Below the pieces are notes generated by a model. The model had not been told where the DNA came from. It was given only the letters and a program-made list of their open reading frames with translations, and searched no databases. Below are positions 15,901-29,253 of a stretch of 54,504 bases of DNA, piece after piece. The position numbers and the translations under genes are program-made. Source of the DNA: Methylotenera sp. (GTDB taxonomy: Bacteria > Pseudomonadota > Gammaproteobacteria > Burkholderiales > Methylophilaceae); assembly GCA_020622105.1 (NCBI GenBank), contig JAHRYP010000018.1:1-54504 (forward strand), read 5' to 3'. The number at the start of each line of letters is the position of its first letter. Within the stretch, counting starts at the first letter, position 1.

Positions 15901-17175
15901 CTAAAGGTTCAGTGCCGGTCTTCGATTGTCAGGTTTAGCTAATAACAGATGTACATCCCCCAAGGCGCGCTCTTCAAAGCCGCCTTCGCAATAACATAAG
16001 TAGAACTCCCACATTTTGATGAACTCTTCAGAGTAGCCAAGTTTGCGCACTTCCTGAATGTTGGCAAAGAAGTTTTTGCGCCACATGGCCAGCGTGGTGG
16101 CGTAATGCGGGCCGATATCTTCAAGGTCGGTCAGACGTAGATCTGTCTCTTTGGTGATGCTGTCCAGCATGGCGGTGTTCGATGGAATGCATGATCCGGG
16201 GAAAATGTAACGCTGTATGAAATCTACTGATTTTTTGGCACTTTCATAACGCTGGTCTGCAATCGTGATTGCCTGTATCAGTGCCAGCCCATTCGGTTTT
16301 AGTAGAGAGCTGACTTTTGCGAAATAGGTGTCGTAGAACTGGTAGCCAACCGCCTCAATCATTTCGATGGAAACCAGCTTGTCGTATTGCCCTTGCAGGT
16401 GGCGATAGTCGTCAAGCAGCAGTGTGATCTGGCCGCTTAGTCCTGCCGCATCTATACGTGCTTTGGCAAGTTCGTACTGTTGCTTTGAGATGGTGGTCGT
16501 GGTGACTTTGCAGCCATAATTCTTTGCCGCATAAATCGAGAAGCCTCCCCAGCCGGTACCGATTTCGATCACGTGGTCGCTCGCTGACAGATCGAGTTTG
16601 TCACAGATGGTTTTAAGTTTCAGTTCTGACGCCTGTTGCAGTGTTTTGGTATGTTCATTGAACATGGCGCTCGAGTACATCATGGTCGGGTCGAGAAACA
16701 GCTCGAACATGTCATTACCCAGATCATAATGTGCGGCGATATTCTTGCGGCTGCCTTCGGTGGTGTTACTGTTCAGCCAATGCAGAACACGCATAATGGG
16801 TTTGGTCAGCCACTGATAGCCGCCCTCCAGCGTATCCATCACCGACTGGTTAATGCACATGAGGCGGATCACATTGGTCAAGTTGTCTGCCGTCCAGTAA
16901 CCCAGCATATAGGCTTCACCGGCACCAATGCTGCCGCCAAACGCAATTTCGCCGTAAAAGCGCGCATCATGCACATGAATCACGGCATGCAGCGCATGCT
17001 CTTTGTCGCCAAAACAATAAGTATCGTTGTCTTCAATCAGTATCAGTCTGCCAATTTTGAGATTGTTCAGATGACTTAATATCTGCGATTTAGCAAATCC
17101 TGCAACCCATTTGGAGCGGCTTTTCTGTTTGAGGCTGGCGGTGAGCAACTCTTGCTGCGATATTGAAATTGGCAT
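15901..17175 (-). CDS. Cyclopropane-synthase-like fatty-acid methyltransferase 1
   Basis: The 424-residue protein has the N-terminal lipid-binding part of CFA synthases and a C-terminal SAM methyltransferase domain (AAHYDLGNDMFELFLDP near residue 147, VIEIGTGWGGFSIYAA near 200). CFA synthases add a methylene from SAM to unsaturated phospholipid chains. Compared with E. coli Cfa, the cysteine in YSCAYW is serine here (YSSAMF) and the histidine in LLHTIG is glutamine (LIQAIT). The glutamate in EMIEAVG, the tyrosine in HYATTL and the cysteine in YCEGGF are kept. The changed residues belong to the bicarbonate site of E. coli Cfa, so the product may not be a cyclopropane. It is the last gene of the nine-gene operon. 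Confidence 0.88.
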   Translation of the reverse strand: MPISISQQELLTASLKQKSRSKWVAGFAKSQILSHLNNLKIGRLILIEDNDTYCFGDKEHALHAVIHVHDARFYGEIAFGGSIGAGEAYMLGYWTADNLTNVIRLMCINQSVMDTLEGGYQWLTKPIMRVLHWLNSNTTEGSRKNIAAHYDLGNDMFELFLDPTMMYSSAMFNEHTKTLQQASELKLKTICDKLDLSASDHVIEIGTGWGGFSIYAAKNYGCKVTTTTISKQQYELAKARIDAAGLSGQITLLLDDYRHLQGQYDKLVSIEMIEAVGYQFYDTYFAKVSSLLKPNGLALIQAITIADQRYESAKKSVDFIQRYIFPGSCIPSNTAMLDSITKETDLRLTDLEDIGPHYATTLAMWRKNFFANIQEVRKLGYSEEFIKMWEFYLCYCEGGFEERALGDVHLLLAKPDNRRPALNL

Positions 17176-17177
17176 AA

Positions 17178-17954
17178 CTATTTCTCTGTGAGTTCTGGAT
17201 GTGAGTAAAAAGGAACGCGCTTCAGCTTTAATAGCAGTGCATTCCAGTAAATACCGGCAACTACCTTGAGTGTCATGAACGGATAGCTGATGAGGAGCCG
17301 GTTGAGCCGTGATGGGCTGATTTCCATGCGCTTCAGGTCAAGCGTGGCATTAAACATTTGTGTGTTATTTTGCAGATTTGTCATGTGAATCAGCACGTCG
17401 CCATCTTGCATGGAAAATGACCAGTGATATTGGATGTCCATAGGCATGAATGGTGATACATGAAACGCTTTATCGAACTTGAATGCCAAGGTGCTTTCAT
17501 TATTGCCTGCGCTCGCTTTTTCAAAGTCATGCACGTAGGCATAATCTTCACCCCACGGCGTGTTGGTAATATGGCTGACCATGGCCTGTAATTTATTACT
17601 GTTAGGCTCAAAGCAGTAATAGAACGTGACCGGATTAAAACAGTGGCCGAAATAACGCATATTGGTGAGCATGCAGATATTGCCTTGCGGTCGCTTACCG
17701 GTAGCCTGAAACACCAGGTCCGCGATGGATTCCTTGAGTGGAACATCCGGATTGCCGTAATAGTCAGCGCGCTTAAACCAGGCCAGGTTTTTGCGCTGGT
17801 AAGACCAGAATCTGCAAGCGCTGAACAGTGTCGGCAGCTCGTCCAGATTCAGGTACATCATGAACACCTTGTAGTTGAACGCGTGACGTTTCGGGCGCCA
17901 CCGCTGATGGAACACCTGTCCGGTATAAATCGCGCACTTGCTGTTATTCATCAC
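17178..17954 (-). CDS. DUF1365 protein
   Basis: The 258-residue protein has DUF1365 hallmarks: IYTGQVFHQRWRPKRHAFNY at the N-terminus, RYFGHCFNPVTFYYCF near residue 105, and NTPWGEDYAYVHDF. The biochemical function is unknown. Members nearly always sit between an FAD-dependent oxidoreductase gene and a CFA-synthase-like gene, exactly as here with gaps of two bases on each side. That association suggests a shared role in modifying membrane fatty acids. Confidence 0.9.
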   Translation of the reverse strand: MMNNSKCAIYTGQVFHQRWRPKRHAFNYKVFMMYLNLDELPTLFSACRFWSYQRKNLAWFKRADYYGNPDVPLKESIADLVFQATGKRPQGNICMLTNMRYFGHCFNPVTFYYCFEPNSNKLQAMVSHITNTPWGEDYAYVHDFEKASAGNNESTLAFKFDKAFHVSPFMPMDIQYHWSFSMQDGDVLIHMTNLQNNTQMFNATLDLKRMEISPSRLNRLLISYPFMTLKVVAGIYWNALLLKLKRVPFYSHPELTEK

Positions 17955-17956
17955 TA

Positions 17957-19204
17957 TTATCCACGGCAGTAACGTTCAAAATGTTTAAGCGCTTCGAGCG
18001 CGCTTACTACGCCATCTTCATGAAAGCCATTGCGCCAGTAGGCACCGGCATATCCGGTGCGATTGACGCCGCTGATCTCTGCATGCCGCGCCTGCGCTGC
18101 TGCGCCGGCGACGGTATAGACCGGATGCATGTAATCGATACGTTTGATCACCTTGCGCGGGTCTATGCCTGCGGTGTGGTTCAGCGTCACTAATAGCGGG
18201 TCATGCGATTCGATCCCTTGCAGGATGTTCATGTTATACGTCACGGCAACGCGCTCAGATGTGGGCTTGGTGACATGATAGTTCCATGCGGCCCAGGCGA
18301 TTTTTTTCTTAGGAAGGAGTGACACATCGTGATGCAGGTACACGGTGTTATTCTGATAAGGAATTGCACCGAGCACTTCGGTTTCAGTTGCAGAGCAGTC
18401 ACTCAGCATGCGCAAGGCCTGATCGCTATGGCAGGCAAAGAACACGTAATCGAATGTTTCTTCTGCGCTGAATCTGGGCTTGATGCGCACCGAACCTTTA
18501 AGGCGGCGTACGCTTTCAACCGGCGTATTGAGCCGGATGCGGTCAATGAACGGTGCGGTGAGCGCTGTTACATAACTCGCAGAGCCGCCGACAATGGTGC
18601 GCCATTGCGGACGGTTATTCACGGTGAGCATGCCGTGGTGGTGAAAGAAACGTACAAAGAAACGCGCCGGAAACTCCAGCATCTGTTTTGCATCGGTCGA
18701 CCAGATCGCTGACCCCATCGGAATGATGTAGTAGTCGATAAACTGCTGGCTGTAGCCGCCTTGTTTAAGATAATCACCGAGCCTGATCTCGTTGCCTTCT
18801 GCTAAAAGCTCCAGCGAACTTTTGTTGAAACGCAGAATATCCTGAATCATTTTATGGAACGATGGTCGGAACAGATTCAAACGCTGTGCGAACAGGCTAT
18901 TAATACTAGTACCGTTATATTCGAGGCCACTATCTTCGCAGCGTACACTGAAGCTCATGCTACTGGCGCGCCATGCCACGCCAAGTTCATTCAGCAATGC
19001 AATGAAGTTAGGGTAGGTACGGTCATTGAACACAATAAACCCGGTATCTACCGAAATATCCTGACCTTCATGCCGAATGTTGTGCGTATGCGTATGGCCA
19101 CCGATATATTGCTCGGCTTCAAACACGGTGATTTCATGCTCTTGGTGCAAATGATGGGCAATCGTGTTGCCCGCAATGCCGCTACCGATAATCGCGATTT
19201 TCAA
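17957..19204 (-). CDS. FAD-dependent amine-oxidase/desaturase-like protein
   Basis: The 415-residue protein begins with a dinucleotide-binding fold (IAIIGSGIAGNTIAHHL) and an FAD ribityl-binding motif (FEAEQYIGGHTHTH), as in flavin amine oxidases and phytoene-desaturase-like enzymes. A typical C-terminal FAD motif reads NRTGYAGAYWRNGFHEDGV. In Rhodobacter sphaeroides, I recall genes of this neighbourhood taking part in making furan fatty acids from methylated vaccenoyl chains, so a desaturase or oxidase acting on phospholipid acyl chains is plausible here. Direct evidence in this window is limited to the fold and operon position. Confidence 0.85.
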   Translation of the reverse strand: MKIAIIGSGIAGNTIAHHLHQEHEITVFEAEQYIGGHTHTHNIRHEGQDISVDTGFIVFNDRTYPNFIALLNELGVAWRASSMSFSVRCEDSGLEYNGTSINSLFAQRLNLFRPSFHKMIQDILRFNKSSLELLAEGNEIRLGDYLKQGGYSQQFIDYYIIPMGSAIWSTDAKQMLEFPARFFVRFFHHHGMLTVNNRPQWRTIVGGSASYVTALTAPFIDRIRLNTPVESVRRLKGSVRIKPRFSAEETFDYVFFACHSDQALRMLSDCSATETEVLGAIPYQNNTVYLHHDVSLLPKKKIAWAAWNYHVTKPTSERVAVTYNMNILQGIESHDPLLVTLNHTAGIDPRKVIKRIDYMHPVYTVAGAAAQARHAEISGVNRTGYAGAYWRNGFHEDGVVSALEALKHFERYCRG

Positions 19205-19225
19205 TCCGGGTTACTTTCTAATCAA

Positions 19226-20167
19226 TTAACGAGTATGAATCTTTTTGGATTCACGAATATCATGCGGAACCGTGCGCAGGTCCCATATCAGGCCAAGTGC
19301 TGAAAGCAGCTTGAGACCATAATAGGTCAGGTCGATCTCCCACCAGTAAAAACCCTGACTCGCAGATGCCGGGTAGTGATGGTGGTTATTGTGCCAGCCT
19401 TCGCCCAGCGTCATGATGGCAATTAGCAGGTTATTGCGGCTCTGGTCTTTGGTTGCATAACGGCGTTTACCCCACACATGCGCCAGAGAATTTACCGTGA
19501 AAGTAGCGTGATAGAGCACAACGGTTGAGACCAGAAACCCCCACACAAAAAGCTGCATGCCATTGGTGCCAAGTTCGGGGTGTGCAACTGACAGCCAGTC
19601 GCCCAGCAGGTAAATGCCAGTGCCCAGCAGTATTGGCACCACGATATCAAAGCGGTCCAGCAGGCGCAACTCTACAAATGAAGCCAGCTCTTTTACGCGA
19701 TGGGTTTGTGTGATGAAATTCCTGGTCGCCAGAAACCAGCCGAAATGGCTCCACAGAAAGCCATGCTGCAGCGGCGAATGTGAGTCTTTATGGTCATCAG
19801 CATAAGCATGATGGTGCCTATGGTGAGATGCCCACCACAGCGGGCCGCGCTGCACCGCACTTGCGCCGAACACGGCAAGAATAAACTGCACCGGGCGTGA
19901 GGTACGGAAAGCCTTGTGTGCGAAATAGCGATGATAGAAGCCGGTAACCGCAAACATGCGAATTGCATATAGTGCTAGAGCAAAACTTGCTGCAAACCAG
20001 CTGAAACCTACCCAGAATACAGCGATGCATCCCACATGCAGCAGCACGAATGGGATCACGCGCAGCCAGTCAATATCAGACCAGTTGTCTTTCGGCGTTG
20101 AGGCATCGACCACTATTTCAGTAGCGACCGCTTTGTTGTCAAACCATGAAATTAATTTCTTAAACAT
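19226..20167 (-). CDS. Membrane fatty-acid desaturase (acyl-CoA/delta-9 type)
   Basis: The 313-residue protein has the three histidine boxes of the di-iron membrane desaturases: H79-RYFA-H84, H115-HRHHH-120 and H259-NNHHH-264. Membrane segments are near residues 35-75 and 165-220. These enzymes use O2 and an electron donor to introduce a cis double bond into long acyl chains. In this operon it could supply the unsaturated chain that the two methyltransferases modify. The donor is not identified; no ferredoxin or cytochrome b5 gene is in the operon. Confidence 0.92.
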   Translation of the reverse strand: MFKKLISWFDNKAVATEIVVDASTPKDNWSDIDWLRVIPFVLLHVGCIAVFWVGFSWFAASFALALYAIRMFAVTGFYHRYFAHKAFRTSRPVQFILAVFGASAVQRGPLWWASHHRHHHAYADDHKDSHSPLQHGFLWSHFGWFLATRNFITQTHRVKELASFVELRLLDRFDIVVPILLGTGIYLLGDWLSVAHPELGTNGMQLFVWGFLVSTVVLYHATFTVNSLAHVWGKRRYATKDQSRNNLLIAIMTLGEGWHNNHHHYPASASQGFYWWEIDLTYYGLKLLSALGLIWDLRTVPHDIRESKKIHTR

Positions 20168-20175
20168 AGTATTCT

Positions 20176-20724
20176 CTACGGATTAGCTTTGTTATGCGGT
20201 ACCCGACGCAGTTTTTGCAGGTCATATCCCATATCGCTGACTTTTTTTACCAACGCCTGATAAGCTTCTTCGCTCAGGTGCGGTGATCTGGCCATGATCC
20301 ACACATAATCGCGGGCATTACGGGCAATAATGGTTTCGCTATAGTTTTCATCTACATGCGCGATCAGGTATTCCGCCTTGATCGGCCAGATGAATTGCAT
20401 ACCCCAACGTGCATTGCCGCTATTTTCCACAACAAAGCCGCGCGGGTTGTAGGTTTTAACCTTGCCATCCAAGCTGCCTTTGTTGAATGTAAATGTGGTT
20501 GCGATCGTGCCGTCATCATCCAGCTTATAGCTTTCAATGGCATTGAAAGATTCGGTTTCAATTGCAGTCGGAATCGCTGCAATCACATACCATGGCCCCA
20601 TGAATCTCTTGATATCCACTTGCGGTACGGTGGCGATCTGTGGTTTCTGGTTGGTAGCACAGGCGCAAAACAGGCTTGTTAATATTGTCATGATGAATAG
20701 CTTCTTTAAAGTCATAAAGTTCAT
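20176..20724 (-). CDS. blc: Lipocalin Blc-like lipoprotein
   Basis: The N-terminus has a hydrophobic signal and a lipobox-like LFCAC ending near residue 22, although the residues before the cysteine are not ideal. The lipocalin motif VDIKRFMGPWYVIAAIP follows near residue 37, then GNARWGMQFIWPIKAEYLI, DYVWIMARSPHLSEEAY and a C-terminal helix. E. coli Blc is an outer-membrane lipocalin that binds fatty acids and lysophospholipids. Its place nine bases before the desaturase suggests it carries an acyl chain or lysolipid linked to the pathway. Confidence 0.9.
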   Translation of the reverse strand: MNFMTLKKLFIMTILTSLFCACATNQKPQIATVPQVDIKRFMGPWYVIAAIPTAIETESFNAIESYKLDDDGTIATTFTFNKGSLDGKVKTYNPRGFVVENSGNARWGMQFIWPIKAEYLIAHVDENYSETIIARNARDYVWIMARSPHLSEEAYQALVKKVSDMGYDLQKLRRVPHNKANP

Positions 20725-20731
20725 AGGGACA

Positions 20732-21367
20732 TTACCTTAGTTTGTAATTGATGACGTAGCCTTCGGGCGTAATCGATTTAAGCGCGACCCAGTCAAGGTT
20801 ATCGGCGCGGTACCATAGTTCAATATTGAGTTTGGGTTTGCCGGCCAGACTGGCGTCCAGCTTATAGCGCAGCGCTTCGACTTTTTTGCCTTTCACGTCC
20901 AGCATTTCACTGCCTGTTTTAACAATTTTGGTATCCAGCCACTCTGCGTTTTGTGGATTCAGCAACTTTGTCTGCTGTAGCATCTTTTGCGACCAGTACG
21001 CGAACGTCATCGCACATCCCGGCAGCACCTGCTGTTGCTTACCATCATCGACTACAAAGCGGTCGCTATCTGCTGCGCCTTTGACTTTGGTCGAAACATC
21101 GTTTTCCAGTGTGCTGGCTTCAAGCTGTTTGAGGCAGCCATCCTGCCATTGCTCAACGGCGGTGTGGTTGTATTGGTAGGCATTAATAAACAGCACCTTT
21201 ACATTGAATTTTGCCTGACTCACAAGTTCGTTGGCTGCGCTTAATTTAAATGTGTGCTGGCCGATTCTGGTTTTATCCAGATAAACATCAAAATTCCATT
21301 CCTTGGCGAATGCGGTATTGGAAACTATTAAGCCCAGAACAACTGCTGGCAGTGTTTTTATCATCAT
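20732..21367 (-). CDS. DUF6134-like secreted protein
   Basis: The 211-residue protein has a signal peptide (about residues 1-21, ending TAFA). A beta-rich domain follows, with WNFDVYLDKTRIGQHTF, two cysteines (DGCLKQL and LPGCAMTFAYWSQKML) and a C-terminal GYVINYKL. I recognise it as the DUF6134 type, often found beside CFA-like genes. No function is known. The two cysteines could form a disulfide in the periplasm. Its start overlaps the stop of the DUF1295 gene by four bases. Confidence 0.75.
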   Translation of the reverse strand: MMIKTLPAVVLGLIVSNTAFAKEWNFDVYLDKTRIGQHTFKLSAANELVSQAKFNVKVLFINAYQYNHTAVEQWQDGCLKQLEASTLENDVSTKVKGAADSDRFVVDDGKQQQVLPGCAMTFAYWSQKMLQQTKLLNPQNAEWLDTKIVKTGSEMLDVKGKKVEALRYKLDASLAGKPKLNIELWYRADNLDWVALKSITPEGYVINYKLR

Positions 21368-22140
21368 TTTGTTACCTTTGGGCGTCCCGGGATAAATGCA
21401 TTGGTGGTTCGGATGTAATCAGCATATTGCGGACGGCGCTCCGTGATGGTTTGTTCCAGCAGTGAAACGCCGCTTACTTTAAGCAGCAGCAATGTCATCA
21501 ACAGTGCTGATGGAATCGCCCACCATGCACCGGCGGCAAGCGCAATCAGATAGAAGCCCCACCACACGCAGCACTCGCCGAAATAGTTTGGGTGGCGGCT
21601 GTAGCGCCAGACACCGCTATTGAGCACCTTGGATTTATTCTCTGGTTTGGCCTTAAAGGCACTAAGCTGACTGTCGGCTAGTGTTTCCCATACTAAACCA
21701 AAGCATAACAACGCAATACCAATCATATCCAGAATGTTGATCGGTGCCGTAGAATTTAATGCACCTAAAACAGGCAGCGAGATGATCCACGCAAGCACAG
21801 CCTGCAGGCCAAAAATGATATACAGACTCTTAAAAGCAAAGCCCGGAGAGTTGTTGCTGCGTATTGCTGCATAGCGGTGATCTTCATGCGGCCCCCAGTT
21901 GCGCCATGTCAGATAGACACACAGCCTCACAGCCCACAATGTGAGCAGAGACAGCACGATCAGTGATCTGGCGTTCAAGCTTGCAATCTCACTCGCATAA
22001 GTGAAACCTGCAACTACGAAGAACAGGCTCCACATGCTGTCTACATGGGTGACGTTGTTGCGGTATAAGCTGACTAGCCAGCCCGCGAAGGCAAACGCAA
22101 GCATCGCATACAGTCCGTACAGGTAAATATGCCAGTTCAT
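21364..22140 (-). CDS. DUF1295 membrane protein (steroid 5-alpha-reductase-like)
   Basis: The 258-residue protein has about six to seven membrane segments and the conserved C-terminal motif GVWRYSRHPNYFGECCVWWG near residues 185-204. That motif is shared with the steroid 5-alpha-reductase, sterol C14-reductase and isoprenylcysteine methyltransferase superfamily. It suggests an NAD(P)H-dependent reductase or transferase acting on a lipid inside the membrane. Start and stop overlap both neighbours by four bases, so it is tightly coupled into the operon. Confidence 0.85.
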   Translation of the reverse strand: MNWHIYLYGLYAMLAFAFAGWLVSLYRNNVTHVDSMWSLFFVVAGFTYASEIASLNARSLIVLSLLTLWAVRLCVYLTWRNWGPHEDHRYAAIRSNNSPGFAFKSLYIIFGLQAVLAWIISLPVLGALNSTAPINILDMIGIALLCFGLVWETLADSQLSAFKAKPENKSKVLNSGVWRYSRHPNYFGECCVWWGFYLIALAAGAWWAIPSALLMTLLLLKVSGVSLLEQTITERRPQYADYIRTTNAFIPGRPKVTK

Positions 22141-22658
22141 GCAGTATGCTCCGTTTTAAAACCATTGATATACTTGGCTATATACAAAAGCATAGGCGTG
22201 ATCACAGCCCATCCAACAGATAAAGCGATATAAGAAGCGCTGCTGGGTAAAGTCACAGCGCCGATATTCTGCGCACCGAAATAAGCGAGTGGCCCGCCGG
22301 ATGCGCCGAATAACACCGCAATCAGATAGCGCCCCTGCATCCAGGCCAGACTCAGGTTGAGTGTGGAGGCAAATGCAAGCCATAACGCCAGAATCCAAAC
22401 CGGGACCAGTGAAGTACTCCAGCCGTGCTGCTGGTATGCGACCAGCTGCATGAACAGCATGGCCTGATCAAAACAGGCGCCAACCAGCAGCGCTGCAAAC
22501 ATGAGCAGCATCTCCGGCTTCGCTTGTTTGGATTGATACAGATGCCAGCCTGTGGTCATTAATGTCACAGTCACGCCTAGCCATGGCATGCCATAAGCCG
22601 CACCCACGACACAGGCAAACCAGGCAAGCTGAAACAATAAAAAGTTGGCAAGCAGCAT
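22137..22658 (-). CDS. DUF2878 membrane protein
   Basis: The 173-residue protein is almost entirely hydrophobic, with about five to six membrane segments. Pattern features are QLAWFACVVGAAYGMPWLG and STLNLSLAWMQGRY. It fits DUF2878, a small family that co-occurs with CFA-like methyltransferases and DUF1295 genes. No catalytic residues stand out and the function is unknown. It begins one base after the methyltransferase 2 stop and overlaps the DUF1295 start by four bases. Confidence 0.8.
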   Translation of the reverse strand: MLLANFLLFQLAWFACVVGAAYGMPWLGVTVTLMTTGWHLYQSKQAKPEMLLMFAALLVGACFDQAMLFMQLVAYQQHGWSTSLVPVWILALWLAFASTLNLSLAWMQGRYLIAVLFGASGGPLAYFGAQNIGAVTLPSSASYIALSVGWAVITPMLLYIAKYINGFKTEHTA

Positions 22659-22659
22659 G

Positions 22660-23718
22660 TTATAGCGGTCGTTCGAATTGATAATGAGTTACCCACCATT
22701 CTTGACCATGGCGGTACCCAAACAGTTCTGCACAGGCCATATAAAAAATGCGCCAGCGGTTACGCCATTGCTCGGCATTTTCTGCACCATAGGTGCTTTC
22801 CAGAATCGGTGTAATCTTGTCTTTGTGCAGGTCCATATTATCTAGCCAGGCATTGGCAGTTTTTTCATAATGAGTGCCATCCCAGCGCCAGCGCTGTTTC
22901 AATTTCAAATGTTGCTGAAAGTGCAATGGCAGGTCGTCACTTGGCATCATGCCGCCGGAGAAAAAGAACTGGCTCATCCAGTCGTCTTCACCCTGTACCT
23001 CAAAGGCATAAGGCGTGCTGCGGTGCACGAAGATATGCATGAAGAATTTACCGCCGGGCAGCAGCCAGTCATGTACTTTTTTATATAGAAGCTGGTGATT
23101 GCGCATGTGTTCAAACATCTCTACTGAAACTACGCGGTCAAACCCATGTTGAATGCCATGGTCAGCCGGGTTGAACGTATTCATGTCGCAAGTAATGACC
23201 TGAATATTATTTAAACCACGTGCTTTTGCCGTCGCTTGTATGTATTCGCGCTGCGAGTTCGAGTTTGATACCGCAGTAATGCTGCTTTGCGGATAGTGTT
23301 CCGCCATCCATAATGTTAAAGATCCCCAGCCACAGCCGAGCTCGAGCACTTGCTGGCCATTGTCCAAGTCGGCATGTTCACAGCTGAGCTTTAATGCGTT
23401 GGCTTCGGCCTCGTCCAGTGTTTTGGTATCAGGTAGCCAAAAACAACTACTGTATTTTCTGTGTTTGCCAAGGCAAAGCTGAAAGAACTCTGCAGGTACT
23501 TCGTAGTGCTGAGCATTTGCGAGTTCCGGCACCAGTGCGATGGGCGACTGGTTCATGGATGTGATGAAATCGGTTTCGATTCTATTGCTGTGTTCACAGT
23601 CTGCTGCGCTGATCTGGTCTAGTCTTGTTTGTGATAAGCGGCGGATACCGGAGCGAATAGCGCTATCTGGTAATAGCCCTTTTTCTGCTATGTTGATCGC
23701 TAAACTCGTGAGTTGCAT
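22660..23718 (-). CDS. Cyclopropane-synthase-like methyltransferase 2
   Basis: The 352-residue SAM methyltransferase (VLELGCGWGSLTLWMAEHYP near residue 125) belongs to the CFA-like group that also resembles plant coclaurine N-methyltransferases. It lacks most of the N-terminal lipid-binding region of true CFA synthases. Unlike the other copy at 15901-17175, it keeps counterparts of the E. coli Cfa Cys (YSSCFW), Glu (EMFEHM), His (FMHIF), Tyr (HYEKT) and Cys (FYMACAELFGY). It is the first gene of the operon; the AT-rich 87 bases before it should hold the promoter. Two divergent copies in one operon suggest two methyl transfers or two substrates. Confidence 0.85.
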   Translation of the reverse strand: MQLTSLAINIAEKGLLPDSAIRSGIRRLSQTRLDQISAADCEHSNRIETDFITSMNQSPIALVPELANAQHYEVPAEFFQLCLGKHRKYSSCFWLPDTKTLDEAEANALKLSCEHADLDNGQQVLELGCGWGSLTLWMAEHYPQSSITAVSNSNSQREYIQATAKARGLNNIQVITCDMNTFNPADHGIQHGFDRVVSVEMFEHMRNHQLLYKKVHDWLLPGGKFFMHIFVHRSTPYAFEVQGEDDWMSQFFFSGGMMPSDDLPLHFQQHLKLKQRWRWDGTHYEKTANAWLDNMDLHKDKITPILESTYGAENAEQWRNRWRIFYMACAELFGYRHGQEWWVTHYQFERPL

Positions 23719-23805: not shown

Positions 23806-24879
23806 TTAATTTTCTTCTAAAAATTCAATAATTCTGCTGGGTAGCCAGCTGTTTTCATTGTTAACAAATGGCGAGTAAAAACCAACATGGCCGCCTTGTT
23901 CCTGATAATCCAGCGTTACGGCATCTGAGACCTCATCCGCTGTCGGCAGAAACTGCGGCGGCATGAACGGGTCATTTTTGGCATTGATAATCAGCGTGGG
24001 TAGCATGATATTTTTTAGAAAAGGTTTCGATGCATTTTTGTGATAATAATCCGTCGCATTTTTGGCACCATACAAAACCGATGTCACAGCGTTATCAATG
24101 TCGTGGATCGTCTTTGCTTGATTGATGTGTTTGTCATTTAACAAGCCGGGGAAGCGCTTGGACAGCGCCAGTGCTTTAGGGCGCATGGAGTTTACAAACA
24201 TCGGCGTATAGAGAATGCGGTTGAGGCCGCTATCAAGCGACACAGCCGAAGCTTTTAAATCAATAGGCGCAGATACGGCAACCGCTTTGCTGATATTCAG
24301 TTTGCTGTTGCTGCCGAATTCTCCCAGCCATTTAAGCAGAGCATTGCCACCTAATGAGTAACCTATCGCATAAATTGGATTATCTGGATAAAGAGACCTG
24401 ACGCGTGTCAGCATGGTGTCAATCTCCAGGCTATCGCCAGCATAATAGAAACGCGGCAGCCGGTTCGGCTCGCCGGAGCAGCCCCTGAAATGGATGACAG
24501 CACCATGCCAGCCTTTTGCTAAAGCCGCGCCCATGAGAGATTTCGCATATTGGCTTTGCGAGTTGCCTTCCAGCCCATGAAAAATCACGACGACAGGTTT
24601 ATGTCGTTCTAGGCGGCCTGACGCAGTTGGATCAGACGCAGCAAGCGAATTTCCAGGTAACTTTTCTGCCCAGTCAACATCAATAAAATCGCCATCATTA
24701 AGTTCCCATCTTTCCCGACGGTATTTGACTTCGGAGCCTGTGGATAGCAGAGATGCTATGATCGTCTGCAGGTGACCACCTGGCAACCAGAATGGCGCTT
24801 TATAAGGCTCGGCTGCATATGTGTTGGTTTGTAAAAGAAGTGTCGGCATTAAAATTAATAAAGCGAATAACAGTCGCAT
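23806..24879 (-). CDS. YheT-family alpha/beta hydrolase with N-terminal signal-like segment
   Basis: The 357-residue protein matches the YheT/ABHD1-3 group: PFWLPGGHLQTIIASLL, IFHGLEGNSQSQYAKSLMGAA, the nucleophile elbow IGYSLGGNALLKWLGE (serine near 172) and the final histidine in QGGHVGFYS. Animal relatives are phospholipid hydrolases. Unusually, the N-terminus is a clean signal-peptide-like stretch (residues 1-22), while E. coli YheT is cytoplasmic. It lies 87 bases before the fatty-acid operon on the same strand and may act on its lipids. Confidence 0.83.
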   Translation of the reverse strand: MRLLFALLILMPTLLLQTNTYAAEPYKAPFWLPGGHLQTIIASLLSTGSEVKYRRERWELNDGDFIDVDWAEKLPGNSLAASDPTASGRLERHKPVVVIFHGLEGNSQSQYAKSLMGAALAKGWHGAVIHFRGCSGEPNRLPRFYYAGDSLEIDTMLTRVRSLYPDNPIYAIGYSLGGNALLKWLGEFGSNSKLNISKAVAVSAPIDLKASAVSLDSGLNRILYTPMFVNSMRPKALALSKRFPGLLNDKHINQAKTIHDIDNAVTSVLYGAKNATDYYHKNASKPFLKNIMLPTLIINAKNDPFMPPQFLPTADEVSDAVTLDYQEQGGHVGFYSPFVNNENSWLPSRIIEFLEEN

Positions 24880-25098: not shown

Positions 25099-25713
25099 AT
25101 GTTCAACATGACGAATGAAATGACAATGAATAAATCTGTTGATACCAAGCAGCACGTGCTGGATGTGGCTAAAGAGATTATTCTCGGTAAAGGCTTTGCT
25201 GCGGTAGGCCTGAATGAGATTCTCACCAGTGCCGGTGTGCCTAAGGGTTCTTTTTATCACTATTTCAAATCCAAAGAGCAATTTGGCGATGAGCTGATAA
25301 AAGACTATTTTGAGCAATATATGCAGCAGCTTGAAAGCACCTTGAATGCAGACAGCTCAAGCAACGCCAGCTGCCTGTTAGCGTATTTTCAGGCTTGGCT
25401 GGATACCCAGTCCAACGACACTACAGCCGATAAATGTCTGGTGGTTAAGCTGAGTGCAGAAGTGACTGACTTGTCCGAGTTAATGCGTATTACTCTAAAA
25501 AATGGTACAGATCGCGTAATAGCGCGGCTTGCTGCATGTGTTGCTGACGGTGTCAGCAAAGGTGAATTTCCGGCGCATGTGGATGCAACTAGCATTACTG
25601 CGGAAATCTATTATATGTGGATAGGCGCCACGCTGCTGACTAAGGTCAGCCATACGCGTGAACCTTTGGAACGCGCAATGGTAGCGACTAAGACGAGACT
25701 GGGTCTAGCCTGA
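25099..25713 (+). CDS. nemR: TetR-family repressor, NemR-like
   Basis: An N-terminal TetR helix-turn-helix (VGLNEILTSAGVPKGSFYHYF, about residues 36-56) is followed by an all-helical ligand domain. The segment DKCLVVKLSAEVTDLSELMR matches the NemR region holding the redox-sensitive cysteine (Cys106 in E. coli, here C113). NemR is inactivated by N-ethylmaleimide, hypochlorite and methylglyoxal, which releases nemA. The downstream genes (YqhD-like, quinone-oxidoreductase-like, NemA-like) are the expected targets. Several ATGs lie within the first ten codons, so the exact start is uncertain. Confidence 0.9.
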   Translation: MFNMTNEMTMNKSVDTKQHVLDVAKEIILGKGFAAVGLNEILTSAGVPKGSFYHYFKSKEQFGDELIKDYFEQYMQQLESTLNADSSSNASCLLAYFQAWLDTQSNDTTADKCLVVKLSAEVTDLSELMRITLKNGTDRVIARLAACVADGVSKGEFPAHVDATSITAEIYYMWIGATLLTKVSHTREPLERAMVATKTRLGLA

Positions 25714-25742
25714 ATACAGGCTGTTTTTATTTAGAAAAATTA

Positions 25743-25757
25743 TAGCCGACTGGTCTA
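25743..25757 (+). promoter_or_regulatory. NemR-type operator 2, before the aldehyde reductase gene
   Basis: TAGCC-gactg-GTCTA differs from operator 1 at only one position, including an identical GACTG centre. It lies 30 bases before the YqhD-like start codon, in the 74-base gap after nemR. GTCTATTTTAAAG at its right side contains a -10-like TATTTT, so bound repressor would block initiation. Two matching sites in front of the regulator and its first target are strong evidence for a local regulon. Confidence 0.75.
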
Positions 25758-25787
25758 TTTTAAAGTTTCCTTAAGGAGTTTTAACCG

Positions 25788-26945
25788 ATGTTAAATTTTG
25801 ATTTTTACAATCCTACGCGTATCTTGTTTGGTAAAGGCAAGGTAGCCGAAATTAATCAGCATGTGCCTGCGGACGCACGCGTACTGGTATTGATGGGCGG
25901 TAATAGCGCAAAAACTAATGGCACGCTGGCAGAGGTGAAAGCCGCACTTGCTAGCCGTTATGTAGAAGAGTTCAGCGGCATTGAGCCTAACCCAAGTTAC
26001 GAAACACTGATGCAGGCTGTGGCGCAGATTAAAGCCAACAAGCTGGATTATCTGCTAGCGGTAGGCGGTGGGTCAGTGATTGATGGCACAAAATTCGTTG
26101 CCGCTGCCGTGTATGCAGAGGGTGATGCCTGGCAGATTTTGACCACGCACGGCGCGAACGTCAAAAAAGCGCTGCCTTATGGCACGGTTTTAACGCTGCC
26201 GGCTACGGGGTCAGAGATGAATGATGGTGCAGTTATCACGCGTGAAGCAGAGAAAGCAAAACTATTTTTCACCAGTGAAAAGGTGTTTCCACAATTTTCA
26301 GTACTAGACCCGACCAAGAGCTACACATTGCCGACACGACAGCTGGCAAACGGCGTGGTTGATGCCTACACACACGTCATGGAGCAATACCTGACGTATC
26401 CGGTAGGCGCTAAAGTGCAGGATAGATTTGCAGAAGGTTTGCTGCAGACTTTGATAGAAACCGGCCCACAGCTGCTTGAAAATCCTAATGATTACGAACT
26501 GCAGGCTAACCTGATGTGGACAGCAACACTGGCATTAAATGGTTTGATTGGTGCAGGTGTGCCGAGTGACTGGGCAACCCACATGATAGGCCATGAAGTA
26601 ACTGCATTGCATGGTTTGGATCATGCGCAAACGCTAGCAATTATATTACCGACAATGCTGAGCTTACGCCGTGAATCAAAACGCGCGAAGCTGCTGCAAT
26701 ATGCAGAGCGCGTGTGGAATATACGTGAAGGCAGTGAAGAGCAGCGCATTGAGGCCGCCATTACCAAAACCCGTGACTTTTTTGAAAGTATGCAGGTAAA
26801 AACGCGTTTATCTGCCTACCAGATCACTAAAGAAGATATTCCTGCATTGCTGGCTCAGCTGGAAAAACACGGGATGGTGAAGCTGGGCGAGCATGGTGAT
26901 GTTACGCTGGATATCAGCCGTACCGTGCTCGAAACTTCAATTTAA
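25788..26945 (+). CDS. yqhD: YqhD-like iron-containing alcohol dehydrogenase / aldehyde reductase
   Basis: The 385-residue protein is a group III metal-dependent alcohol dehydrogenase. Features are the N-terminal FDFYNPTRILFGKGKV, the nucleotide loop GGGSVIDGTKFVAAA near residue 95, and metal ligands in DAYTHVMEQYLTY and GHEVTALHGLDHAQ (Asp, His, His, His). E. coli YqhD is an NADPH-dependent reductase that detoxifies short aldehydes from lipid peroxidation and glyoxals. Its position under a NemR-type operator fits electrophile defence. A clear AAGGAG ribosome binding site is 9 bases before the start codon. Confidence 0.9.
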   Translation: MLNFDFYNPTRILFGKGKVAEINQHVPADARVLVLMGGNSAKTNGTLAEVKAALASRYVEEFSGIEPNPSYETLMQAVAQIKANKLDYLLAVGGGSVIDGTKFVAAAVYAEGDAWQILTTHGANVKKALPYGTVLTLPATGSEMNDGAVITREAEKAKLFFTSEKVFPQFSVLDPTKSYTLPTRQLANGVVDAYTHVMEQYLTYPVGAKVQDRFAEGLLQTLIETGPQLLENPNDYELQANLMWTATLALNGLIGAGVPSDWATHMIGHEVTALHGLDHAQTLAIILPTMLSLRRESKRAKLLQYAERVWNIREGSEEQRIEAAITKTRDFFESMQVKTRLSAYQITKEDIPALLAQLEKHGMVKLGEHGDVTLDISRTVLETSI

Positions 26946-27034
26946 TTGCAAAATTTACTGGCAATATTCAGCCAGCTATTAAATAAACAAGTGCAGTAGC
27001 ACCTAACCATCACTTTAACTATGTGAGGATACCT

Positions 27035-28057
27035 ATGAAAGCAGTTGGACTTACCCGTTATCTCCCGATTACTGATCCAGAATCATTAATGGATATTGAA
27101 CTGGATATCCCGGAAGTGAGTGGGCGGGATTTGCTGGTGCGCGTGCATGCCGTATCAGTCAATCCAGTGGATACCAAGGTACGTAAACCAAAAGACAAAG
27201 TCGAACCTAGCCCAAAAATACTGGGTTGGGATGCGGCGGGTGAAGTAGTCAAAACTGGTCCGGAATGCACTTATTTTCAGGTGGGTGACAAGGTATTTTA
27301 TGCCGGAGACCTCACACGCTCCGGTTCCAATGCCGAGTATCAATTGATTGATGAACGGATTGTAGGCGTTATGCCGCAAAGTCTGAACTTTGCTCAGGCC
27401 GCCGCATTGCCGTTAACTGCTGTAACTGCCTGGGAAGCCCTGTTTGATCGACTGCAGATAGTACAAGAGCCAGCACATAATAAAGGCAAAAGCTTGCTCA
27501 TTATAGGCGGTGCGGGTGGCGTAGGTTCGATTGCAATTCAACTGGCAAGTAAACTGGCAGGAATAACAGTGGTGGCTACCGCATCACGTCCTGAGACAGA
27601 AAAATGGGTGCGTGAGCTAGGTGCGCATCATGTTGTAAATCATCGGCAAGACCTTATGCAGCAGATGGCCGCTATCGGCATAGTACAGCCGGATTATATT
27701 TTCTGCTGCAATGACACGGATACATATTTTCCGGTGATGGCGGCGTTGATCAAACCGCAAGGTCGTATATGCTCAATCGTAGAAACCGTAAGGCCCGTTG
27801 ATATCAATCTGCTCAAAAATAAAAGTGCAGCCTTTGTGTGGGAGCTCATGTATACACGCTCGATGTACCAGACGGACGATATGGTTGAACAGCACAATAT
27901 CCTCAACATAGTCGCCAGACTAGTGGATCAGGGGCTGGTCACAACTACGCTGAAGCAAACATTGTCTCCAATCAATGCCGAGAATCTGCGCAAAGCGCAT
28001 GCACAGTTGGAGGCTGGTACCACCATAGGCAAGATTGTGTTGAGTAGTTGGCATTAA
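27035..28057 (+). CDS. Zinc-type alcohol dehydrogenase-like / quinone oxidoreductase (MDR family)
   Basis: This 340-residue medium-chain dehydrogenase/reductase has an N-terminal GroES-like domain (MKAVGLTRYLPITDPESL, VSVNPVDTKVRKP) and a Rossmann domain with SLLIIGGAGGVGSIAIQLAS near residue 150. Catalytic zinc ligands are absent, as in quinone oxidoreductases and enone reductases. I chose the ATG at 27035, which follows GTGAGGA at a proper distance, over a GTG four codons upstream. It probably reduces alpha,beta-unsaturated carbonyls or quinones, in keeping with the NemR regulon. Confidence 0.88.
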   Translation: MKAVGLTRYLPITDPESLMDIELDIPEVSGRDLLVRVHAVSVNPVDTKVRKPKDKVEPSPKILGWDAAGEVVKTGPECTYFQVGDKVFYAGDLTRSGSNAEYQLIDERIVGVMPQSLNFAQAAALPLTAVTAWEALFDRLQIVQEPAHNKGKSLLIIGGAGGVGSIAIQLASKLAGITVVATASRPETEKWVRELGAHHVVNHRQDLMQQMAAIGIVQPDYIFCCNDTDTYFPVMAALIKPQGRICSIVETVRPVDINLLKNKSAAFVWELMYTRSMYQTDDMVEQHNILNIVARLVDQGLVTTTLKQTLSPINAENLRKAHAQLEAGTTIGKIVLSSWH

Positions 28058-28128
28058 TTTATGGCGGTGAAGTTCTTTTAGCCTGAAAAGTAAGAGAAGC
28101 ATTTAATTTAAGAAAGTATTCATAACAA

Positions 28129-29253
28129 ATGAGTGAAACCCAAACAAATAGAATTTTTCAACCATTGCAGTTTGGTAGATTCAAACTCAATAATCGAATT
28201 GTAATGGCACCGATGACGCGCAATAAATCACCAAAAGGTGTGCCGGGTACAAATGTAGCTGAATATTATCGTAGTCGCGCCGCAGGTGGTGTAGGGCTGA
28301 TCATTACAGAAGGTACGTATATCGGCCACCCTGCCGCTAACGGCTATGCAGATGTACCGGCTTTTCACGGTGAACAGGCCTTGGCCGGCTGGAAAAATGT
28401 GGTTGAAGCAGTGCATGCCGCAGGTGGGCTGATCATACCGCAAATATGGCACGTAGGCGCTGCAAGAAGTCCTGGTGTTGAGCCAGACCCTGCCGTACCA
28501 GGTTATGGACCTATGCAGGTAGAAAATGACGGACAGTTACTTGTTAAGGCCATGACAAAAGCAGATATTGCAGACGCAATTAATGCTTACGCCGAGGCGG
28601 CAGCAAACGCAGAAGAAATCGGCTTTGATGGTGTAGAGATTCACGGCGCGCATGGTTACCTGATTGACCAGTTTTTATGGGAAGGTAGTAACCAGCGGTC
28701 GGATGAATACGGTGGCACGCTGGAAAATCGCAGCAGATTTGCGCTGGAAGTGGTGAAGGCAGTTAGAGCCAGAGTGAGTGCTGATTTTCCCGTCGTATTC
28801 AGGTTCTCGCAGTGGAAGCTTGGCGATTATAATGCCAGAATCGCCAATAGCCCGGAGGAGTTGGCGCAGCTGCTCAAACCACTTGCCGATGCTGGTGTAG
28901 ATTTCTTTCATGCCAGCACCAGAAGGCTGTGGCAGCCTGCATTTGAAGGTTCAAATGATACATTGGCGACCTGGACCAGAAAACTCACCGGAAAACCGGT
29001 GATTGCAGTGGGTAGCGTGGGCTTGGAAAAAGAATTCAGAGTCGGCCATTTTACGCGCGAGGAATCACCTGATACTGCAATTCACATTGATGTTAAGCAG
29101 CTCAGTGACGGCATTGAGCATCAGTTATTTGATATGGTTGCGGTGGGACGCGCGCTACTAGCTGACCCTAATTGGACTAACAAGCTTAAAGAAGGCAGGA
29201 TTACAGACTTAATCGGATTTGATGTGAAGGCACTGGATGAACTGGTGGTGTAA
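28129..29253 (+). CDS. nemA: Old Yellow Enzyme family FMN reductase (NemA-like)
   Basis: The 374-residue TIM-barrel flavoprotein has the OYE pattern: NRIVMAPMTRNKSP, the substrate-binding histidine pair and tyrosine in VEIHGAHGYLIDQFLWEGSNQRSDEYGG (shown here in parts: HGAHGY near residue 173), and FMN-phosphate residues near the C-terminal VAVGRALLADPNW. E. coli NemA reduces N-ethylmaleimide, nitro compounds and enones with NAD(P)H and is controlled by NemR. It closes the regulon and is followed by a stable hairpin. Confidence 0.92.
   Translation: MSETQTNRIFQPLQFGRFKLNNRIVMAPMTRNKSPKGVPGTNVAEYYRSRAAGGVGLIITEGTYIGHPAANGYADVPAFHGEQALAGWKNVVEAVHAAGGLIIPQIWHVGAARSPGVEPDPAVPGYGPMQVENDGQLLVKAMTKADIADAINAYAEAAANAEEIGFDGVEIHGAHGYLIDQFLWEGSNQRSDEYGGTLENRSRFALEVVKAVRARVSADFPVVFRFSQWKLGDYNARIANSPEELAQLLKPLADAGVDFFHASTRRLWQPAFEGSNDTLATWTRKLTGKPVIAVGSVGLEKEFRVGHFTREESPDTAIHIDVKQLSDGIEHQLFDMVAVGRALLADPNWTNKLKEGRITDLIGFDVKALDELVV

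What the first reader, a model, noticed from the sequence alone, without database searches (positions are those of the whole stretch)
15901..23718. Nine-gene operon for an unknown membrane fatty-acid modification
Seen: all nine genes run on one strand with gaps of 1-21 bases or 4-base overlaps. In transcription order they encode CFA-like methyltransferase 2, DUF2878, DUF1295, a DUF6134-like protein, lipocalin, di-iron desaturase, FAD oxidoreductase, DUF1365 and CFA-like methyltransferase 1. Known: related CFA-like/FAD/DUF1365 groups occur in many proteobacteria, and in Rhodobacter sphaeroides a neighbouring gene set makes furan fatty acids through UfaM, UfaD and UfaO. Inference: this operon makes a methylated, perhaps furan or cyclopropane, acyl chain, with its own desaturase supplying the double bond, a reductase-like DUF1295 and a lipocalin carrier. 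The four DUF proteins have no assigned reaction, and I know of no description of this full nine-gene set.
Basis: partly seen in the sequence, partly recalled or inferred. Interest (0 to 1): 0.85.

Follow-up and report, generated by a model that had tools for sequence, protein, structure and literature searches.

The report
Complete dimethyl furan fatty-acid operon
This nine-gene bacterial operon most likely builds furan fatty acids, unusual membrane lipids thought to soak up reactive oxygen; it brings together counterparts of the four known enzymes, which lie apart in the studied bacteria, with five partners whose jobs can now be tested.

Summary
The 'unknown' modification is most likely the published furan fatty acid pathway (PMC7380195). 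By homology, order, phylogeny and a residue signature, CFA-like 1 is UfaM, DUF1365 is UfaO, the FAD protein UfaD, and CFA-like 2 FufM, which adds a second ring methyl. Mono- and dimethyl-furan chains are predicted, not cyclopropane. All 25 UfaM-type rows have Gln where five other CFA-type proteins, E. coli Cfa included, have His. Of 398 genomes sampled from the phylum, 30 of 33 with the FufM ortholog have UfaD (151 of 398 overall). Exactly this nine-gene order is in 21 of 60 fetched loci, 20 of 24 in the genus. New here: DUF1295 adjoins fufM in 24 of 24, 33 of 38 and 55 of 80 loci in three partly overlapping sets, including all eight named Rhodopseudomonas loci, and resembles steroid 5-alpha-reductase. 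Some relatives have sigma/anti-sigma genes upstream; none was seen upstream here. No lipid was measured; accessory-gene roles are inference.

The parts
22660..23718 (-). fufM-like methyltransferase (CFA-like 2), 352 aa: predicted second ring methylation (mono- to dimethyl-furan)
   Evidence: 49% identity over 344 aa to the Rhodopseudomonas FufM candidate; 18-row clade at 100/100; best PDB hit coclaurine N-methyltransferase, residues 11-349; same best hit for the Rhodopseudomonas protein, residues 52-339
22137..22658 (-). DUF2878 protein, 173 aa; role unknown
   Evidence: PF11086 144 bits; of 20 loci returned by a class-wide search (one is the window), 19 lie beside another gene of this operon
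21364..22140 (-). DUF1295 membrane protein, 258 aa, predicted SRD5A-like, possibly an NADPH ene-reductase; partner of FufM by linkage
20732..21367 (-). DUF6134 protein, 211 aa, apparent signal peptide; possibly periplasmic lipid-handling (inference)
   Evidence: PF19630 143.9 bits; N-terminus read by eye
20176..20724 (-). Lipocalin, 182 aa, N-terminus resembling a lipoprotein signal; possible acyl/lipid carrier (inference)
   Evidence: Lipocalin_2 135 bits; NCBIfam Blc model 75.8 bits, below its cut-off 267
19226..20167 (-). SCD1-like di-iron acyl desaturase, 313 aa; predicted supplier of the cis double bond (inference)
   Evidence: FA_desaturase; best PDB hit Acyl-CoA desaturase 1, 4ymk, E 2.8e-33; histidine boxes HRYFAH, HRHHH, HNNHHH visible
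17957..19204 (-). ufaD: predicted FAD-dependent desaturase of the methylated acyl chain, 415 aa
   Evidence: 42-44% identity to six Rhodopseudomonas ufaD candidates (L135-L140), same ufaD-ufaO-ufaM order
17178..17954 (-). ufaO: DUF1365 protein, predicted oxygen insertion giving the furan ring, 258 aa
   Evidence: PF07103 271 bits; only 26-29% identity to Rhodopseudomonas candidates, in syntenic position
15901..17175 (-). ufaM: predicted SAM-dependent acyl methylase (CFA-like 1), 424 aa
   Evidence: 25-row clade with Rhodopseudomonas UfaM at 99/98, excluding E. coli Cfa; His266-to-Gln signature
23806..24879 (-). alpha/beta-hydrolase with apparent signal peptide (YheT-like by recall); uncertain tenth gene
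   Evidence: 87 bp upstream, same strand; also upstream in L097, L098, L099, L101; Abhydrolase_1; PRK10985 257 bits, under its cut-off 267

Best explanation
The operon encodes a self-contained pathway that converts mono-unsaturated acyl chains of membrane phospholipids into mono- and then dimethyl-furan fatty acids. Inferred steps: the SCD-like desaturase makes a cis double bond on a saturated chain; UfaM (CFA-like 1) methylates it and shifts the double bond; UfaD (FAD) adds the second, conjugated double bond; UfaO (DUF1365) inserts O2-derived oxygen to close the furan; FufM (CFA-like 2) puts on the second ring methyl. The last four reactions are shown experimentally for alphaproteobacterial counterparts (PMC7380195), not here. 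DUF1295 is a FufM-linked membrane protein, probably an NADPH ene-reductase. Lipocalin and DUF6134 may handle the modified lipid in the periplasm or outer membrane; DUF2878 is unassigned. If the substrate is 16:1 delta-9 (recalled as a main Methylotenera fatty acid), the product would be 7-(3,4-dimethyl-5-pentylfuran-2-yl)heptanoate chains. The expected job is scavenging of singlet oxygen and other oxidants.
For: Published reactions: PMC7380195 (sections read). Orthology: CFA1 clade with Rhodopseudomonas UfaM 99/98; CFA2 clade with the Rhodopseudomonas FufM candidate 100/100. Genus g256 is taken as Rhodopseudomonas because contig G535:C1 (4,039,244 bases) has the length of R. palustris JSC-3b KI632513.1. 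Same ufaD-ufaO-ufaM order there. His266 is Gln in 25 of 25 UfaM-type rows and His in 5 of 5 other CFA-type rows. CFA1 scores 287 and Rhodopseudomonas UfaM 291 bits against NCBI's Cfa model, cut-off 400. UfaD is in 30 of 33 FufM-bearing genomes vs 121 of the other 365 (Fisher 5.7e-11, uncorrected for kinship); UfaD and DUF1365 are in the same 33 of 36 FufM-bearing genomes. A Halomonas UfaM gives the predicted methylated intermediate in E. coli (PMC12089945 passages). ChrR-like or RskA-type anti-sigma genes, with ECF sigma genes where read, lie next to the operon in relatives; furan fatty acid genes are in the core sigmaE-ChrR regulon in print (PMC6852236 passages).
Against: No lipid has been measured here, and no held paper has both 'furan fatty acid' and 'Methylotenera'. 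UfaO identity to Rhodopseudomonas is only 26-29%. Three genomes of genus g128 have the FufM ortholog but neither UfaD nor DUF1365, so FufM may have another substrate there. The nearest solved relatives of CFA2 are N-methyltransferases. The Cys at Cfa position 139 is not a clean marker: among 18 operon-type CFA1 rows it is Ser in 12, Cys in 4, Ala in 2. That P0001 is RPA0924 rests on synteny and identity ranking; CGA009 was not in hand. The own genome (96% complete, 53 contigs) has no ChrR Cupin_7 match. In R. sphaeroides, deleting three other genes of the ufaD-ufaO operon (RSP1087-1089) did not change the lipid profile, so accessory genes may not be needed for synthesis.
Confidence: 0.82

Rival explanations
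1. Only the monomethyl furan is made (UfaM, UfaD, UfaO act as published), while CFA-like 2 plus DUF1295 do something else, for example methylate an amine-bearing lipid, as coclaurine N-methyltransferase relatives and ICMT/PEMT-type proteins do.
Against: CFA2 is 49% identical to the Rhodopseudomonas protein that matches RPA0924/FufM, whose furan methylation was shown in vitro in print; a plant member, AT4G33110, was reported 37.87% identical to FufM (PMC10940516 passages). FufM-UfaD co-occurrence is strong. DUF1295's best matches are steroid reductases.
Confidence: 0.12
2. A cyclopropane or plain methyl-branched fatty acid is the end product, with UfaD/UfaO-like genes acting as accessory oxidoreductases.
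For: Both methyltransferases carry the CMAS domain, and the Halomonas paper detected cyclic fatty acids in both the ufaM and the cfa overexpression strains.
Against: The His of the Cfa bicarbonate site is Gln in all 25 UfaM-type rows, window included; the score is under NCBI's Cfa cut-off; the tree separates CFA1 from E. coli Cfa. A separate CFA-type paralog with Cys and His at those sites exists in this genome on contig C34.
Confidence: 0.04
3. The desaturase does not supply the first double bond but acts late, adding a double bond conjugated with the furan (unsaturated furan fatty acids).
For: It is next to ufaD in each fetched locus where it was found; unsaturated furan fatty acids exist (PMC10558370, start of abstract in the listing only).
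Against: The two solved relatives found are acyl-CoA desaturases, recalled as delta-9 enzymes acting on saturated chains. L123 has no desaturase match beside an otherwise complete set, so it is not always part of the set; that bears on both readings.
Confidence: 0.2

Closest known systems
Furan fatty acid pathway of Rhodobacter sphaeroides and Rhodopseudomonas palustris (UfaM, UfaD, UfaO, FufM; PMC7380195)
   Same: Four of the nine proteins are predicted counterparts; same ufaD-ufaO-ufaM order as RPA2571-2569.
   Different: In R. sphaeroides ufaM lies apart from ufaD-ufaO; in R. palustris fufM (RPA0924) lies apart. Here all four are in one operon with DUF1295, DUF2878, DUF6134, lipocalin and an acyl desaturase.
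Shewanella oneidensis RpoE2-dependent operon SO_3386-SO_3374 with phrB and cfa SO_3379 (PMC4336711 passages)
   Same: A CFA-type gene in a singlet-oxygen-type ECF regulon in a non-phototroph; furan fatty acids are reported from Shewanella putrefaciens (reference title seen).
   Different: Contains photolyase genes; full gene content was not compared here.
Aeromonas salmonicida cluster NTF2-SDR-FAD-DUF1365-cfa-DUF2878 (PMC10012899 passages)
   Same: FAD, DUF1365, cfa and DUF2878 adjacent and lowered together with a ChrR-family gene by riboflavin.
   Different: No DUF1295 or second methyltransferase named in the passages; function called unknown there.
Halomonas sp. YLGW01 ufaM-ufaO-ufaD (PMC12089945 passages)
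   Same: Consecutive genes; UfaM activity shown in E. coli.
   Different: No FufM or accessory genes named in the passages seen.
Chlamydomonas SAK1-dependent singlet-oxygen genes CFA1, CFA2/CPLD27, DUF1365, DUF1295 (PMC4067076 passages)
   Same: Members of the same families induced together by singlet oxygen.
   Different: Separate eukaryotic genes; orthology not tested here.

Membership tests
UfaM | Groups with UfaM of a known furan producer, apart from Cfa | tested here: met
   25-row clade 99/98; 41% identity over 368 aa to the Rhodopseudomonas candidate
UfaM | Loss of the Cfa bicarbonate-site His (site recalled; all five recalled residues agreed with the fetched E. coli sequence) | tested here: met
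   Gln in 25 of 25 rows incl. window; His in 5 of 5 other CFA-type rows
UfaM | Makes 11-methyl-12-octadecenoate type product | not testable with these tools
   Needs FAME analysis
UfaD | FAD/NAD-binding dehydrogenase-like protein next to ufaO and ufaM | tested here: met
   NAD_binding_8/Amino_oxidase; adjacency; 42-44% to six Rhodopseudomonas loci
UfaO | DUF1365 domain in the ufaD-ufaO-ufaM order | tested here: met
   271 bits; order; identity only 26-29%
UfaO | O2-dependent furan formation | not testable with these tools
   Needs the published liposome assay
FufM | Ortholog of the Rhodopseudomonas second methylase, outside the ufaMOD cluster there | tested here: met
   49% over 344 aa; clade 100/100; ortholog in 6 of 6 g256 genomes. 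RPA0924 sequence itself not in hand
FufM | Methylates mono- to dimethyl-furan | not testable with these tools
   Needs the published liposome assay
Cyclopropane fatty acid synthase (Cfa) | Curated Cfa score and intact bicarbonate-site His for CFA-like 1 | tested here: not met
   287 vs cut-off 400; Gln at the His position
ECF11 sigmaE-ChrR regulon | ChrR anti-sigma encoded in the genome | tested here: not met
   No PF12973 match in the own genome, 96% complete; 5 of 52 genus genomes have one, in four just upstream of the operon
Steroid 5-alpha-reductase (SRD5A) superfamily, DUF1295 | Sequence and fold resemblance | tested here: met
Steroid 5-alpha-reductase (SRD5A) superfamily, DUF1295 | NADPH-dependent C=C reduction | not testable with these tools
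Acyl delta-9 desaturase | SCD-like sequence with three histidine boxes | tested here: met
   4ymk E 2.8e-33 over residues 32-300; boxes seen
Acyl delta-9 desaturase | Regiospecificity | not testable with these tools
   Needs product analysis

The most novel reading that the evidence does not exclude
The operon is a closed antioxidant cycle, not only a synthesis route: DUF1295 is a membrane ene-reductase that reduces the reactive ene-dione formed when singlet oxygen opens the furan ring, giving a saturated 1,4-diketone that can close again to furan or is at least harmless. FufM plus DUF1295 would then be a make-and-mend module, with lipocalin/DUF6134 moving damaged lipid. (Ring opening to ene-diones and 1,4-diketone cyclisation are general chemistry, recalled; the paper searches gave me no passage on it.)
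Probability: 0.15. Interest if true: 0.8.

Novelty: new variant of a known kind. Interest (0 to 1): 0.5.

Why it matters
It extends a complete predicted furan fatty acid pathway, including the dimethyl step, to Methylotenera and several other families, and gives several DUF families a shared, testable context. The strongest handle is DUF1295: strains lacking RPA0923, the gene numbered next to fufM (RPA0924), alone and together with fufM, are listed in the strain table of PMC7380195, but none of the main-text passages found reports a lipid result for them (supplement not seen). If RPA0923 is the DUF1295 gene, as synteny in the eight named Rhodopseudomonas loci suggests, its role can be examined with existing strains. 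The co-conserved accessory genes point to chemistry or transport beyond the four known enzymes.
Full report
Observation. Pfam supports every label above its gathering score. Among the relatives of CFA-like 2 that carry a source name, the closest with an organism (96% identity) is from Methylotenera sp., so the host is taken as Methylotenera-like, a methylotroph by recall.

Identity of the four core enzymes. In R. sphaeroides and R. palustris, UfaM (CFA-like) methylates cis-vaccenate on phospholipid, UfaD (FAD/NAD-binding) adds a conjugated double bond, UfaO (DUF1365) is needed for O2-derived oxygen insertion, and FufM (a second CFA-like methylase, RPA0924) makes the dimethyl furan (PMC7380195; abstract, section 3 part 1, sections 8, 9, 10 and 18, and passages seen). 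Its identity rests on one contig of 4,039,244 bases (G535:C1) that has the same length as R. palustris JSC-3b KI632513.1. In all six g256 loci read (L135-L140), FAD, DUF1365 and CFA-type genes lie in the order of RPA2571-2570-2569, the same order as in the window. Window FAD is 42-44% and CFA1 40-42% identical to them; DUF1365 is only 26-29% (five of the six).

Tree and residues. In a 48-row tree, the 25 CFA1/UfaM rows form one group (99/98) that leaves out E. coli Cfa, the window genome's own paralog and the Rhodopseudomonas third paralog; the 18 CFA2/FufM rows form another (100/100). The build warned of long branches for the own paralog, so its exact place is unsure. At E. coli Cfa position 266 (bicarbonate site, recalled), all 25 UfaM-type rows have Gln and the five other CFA-type rows have His; Glu239 and Tyr317 are kept in all rows, while position 139 is mixed. 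Against NCBI's Cfa model the window CFA1 scores 287 and the Rhodopseudomonas UfaM 291, both under the cut-off of 400.

FufM. The CFA2 ortholog is present in 6 of 6 g256 genomes at 49-51% identity. Both it and the window protein match coclaurine N-methyltransferase best among solved structures. A plant paper reports AT4G33110 as 37.87% identical to FufM (PMC10940516 passages). That the g256 protein is RPA0924 is inferred: the paper gives 26% identity of RPA0924 to UfaM and 38% for RPA3082. Here the FufM candidate aligns with UfaM at 30% over 223 aa, while a third CFA-type paralog (a partial row) aligns at 34% and is closer to E. coli Cfa at 45%.

Co-occurrence. In 398 genomes sampled from the phylum, the CFA2 ortholog is in 33 (E up to 1e-35) and UfaD in 151 (E up to 1e-60). 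All CFA2-bearing genomes of that sample except three (G095, G419, G438) have UfaD: 30 of 33, against 121 of 365 others (Fisher 5.7e-11; not corrected for kinship). In 36 CFA2-bearing genomes (32 of the 33, plus four), UfaD is in 33 and DUF1365 in the same 33. This agrees with the published statement that FufM is found in a subset of UfaM/D/O organisms. The three exceptions count against a strict dependence.

Conservation of the set. Of 37 same-genus genomes including the window's, 25 have the CFA2 ortholog (several of the 12 without are incomplete). I fetched 60 loci, 53 around CFA2 and seven around ufaD. Of these, 21 have all nine genes in the window's order: 20 of 24 same-genus loci plus L121 of another family. 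Of the other four same-genus loci, L095, L096 and L118 are cut by contig ends and L105 lacks DUF6134. Elsewhere L120 lacks DUF6134, L119 lacks DUF6134 and lipocalin, and L123, of another class, lacks the desaturase. In families f35 and f44 (L127-L130, L147) the order is permuted to desaturase-FAD-DUF1365-CFA1-(DUF2878)-DUF1295-CFA2-lipocalin; in f26 (L124-L126) fewer genes are found; in others CFA2 stands with DUF1295 only, or alone. A class-wide DUF2878 search found it in 46 of 274 genomes; of the 20 loci returned, 19 (one being the window) lie beside another gene of this operon, 13 of them in the window's order CFA2-DUF2878-DUF1295-DUF6134.

Regulation. In four same-genus genomes (L097, L098, L099, L101) a ChrR-cupin gene lies upstream with the hydrolase gene next to it, on the operon's strand. 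In the two that I read, L097 and L098, an ECF sigma gene precedes it (Pfam checked for L098). The hydrolase-to-CFA2 distance is about 0.3 kb in L098 and about 1.9 kb in the other three, with opposite-strand ORFs between in L097. A GCATC-N17-CGTA element occurs upstream of CFA2 in those four loci and before the sigma gene in the two I checked; the pattern set, chosen after the fact, occurs 3-4 times per 38 kb in these loci. L095 and L103 have an ECF sigma with an RskA-type anti-sigma instead. In L124 (family f26) a ChrR above the curated cut-off (191.9 vs 124.5) and an ECF sigma lie inside the cluster. The window's genome has no ChrR match, and no such pair is among the ORFs upstream in the window. 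In print, furan fatty acid genes belong to the core sigmaE-ChrR regulon and are needed for ChrR turnover by singlet oxygen (PMC6852236 passages).

What is shown and what is inferred. Shown here: gene content, order, conservation, phylogeny, residue signature, fold prediction. Shown by others for counterparts: the UfaM, UfaD, UfaO and FufM reactions, and Halomonas UfaM activity. Inferred: that this operon makes mono- and dimethyl-furan chains; that the SCD-like desaturase supplies the double bond; that DUF1295 is a reductase; that lipocalin and DUF6134 carry lipid. Against a synthetic role for accessory genes in general, deletion of each of RSP1087, 1088 and 1089 left the R. sphaeroides profile unchanged; I did not test whether those are counterparts of any gene here.

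Print search. Searches in the held library for FufM (4 papers, two on the subject), furan fatty acid with Methylotenera (0), DUF1295 with reductase and fatty acid (5 listed, none on this by title or passage seen) and at least two of DUF2878/DUF1295/DUF1365/DUF6134/cyclopropane (6 listed, passages read in three and sections of a fourth) showed me no description of the nine-gene set. Dufour 2008, a likely place for an early description of parts of it, was not held.

Noticed in passing
25099-29253: CurR-like TetR repressor (NCBIfam CurR 238 bits, cut-off 300), iron-type alcohol dehydrogenase (by eye), zinc-type dehydrogenase and an old-yellow-enzyme family gene run divergently from the hydrolase gene: an electrophile-detox-like cassette next to the operon.
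   Followed up: partly
L095:1635-2944, L103:14066-15351, L097:937-2017, L098:2517-3565: Two different ECF sigma/anti-sigma types (RskA-like, ChrR-cupin) occupy the upstream spot in different same-genus relatives: apparent regulator exchange at a constant operon.
   Followed up: partly
G095, G419, G438: Three genomes of genus g128 (Bradyrhizobium by one contig-length match, G170:C99 and L217) have the FufM ortholog but no UfaD or DUF1365 match; its substrate there is unclear.
   Followed up: no
L124:6868-7322: A small membrane protein read by eye as DUF2177-like sits between DUF1295 and the ChrR/ECF pair in L124; a DUF2177 gene is also SAK1-dependent in Chlamydomonas.
   Followed up: no
G000 contig C34:17165-17965 (L001): A separate CFA-type paralog with the Cfa-like Cys and His at the bicarbonate site.
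   Followed up: partly
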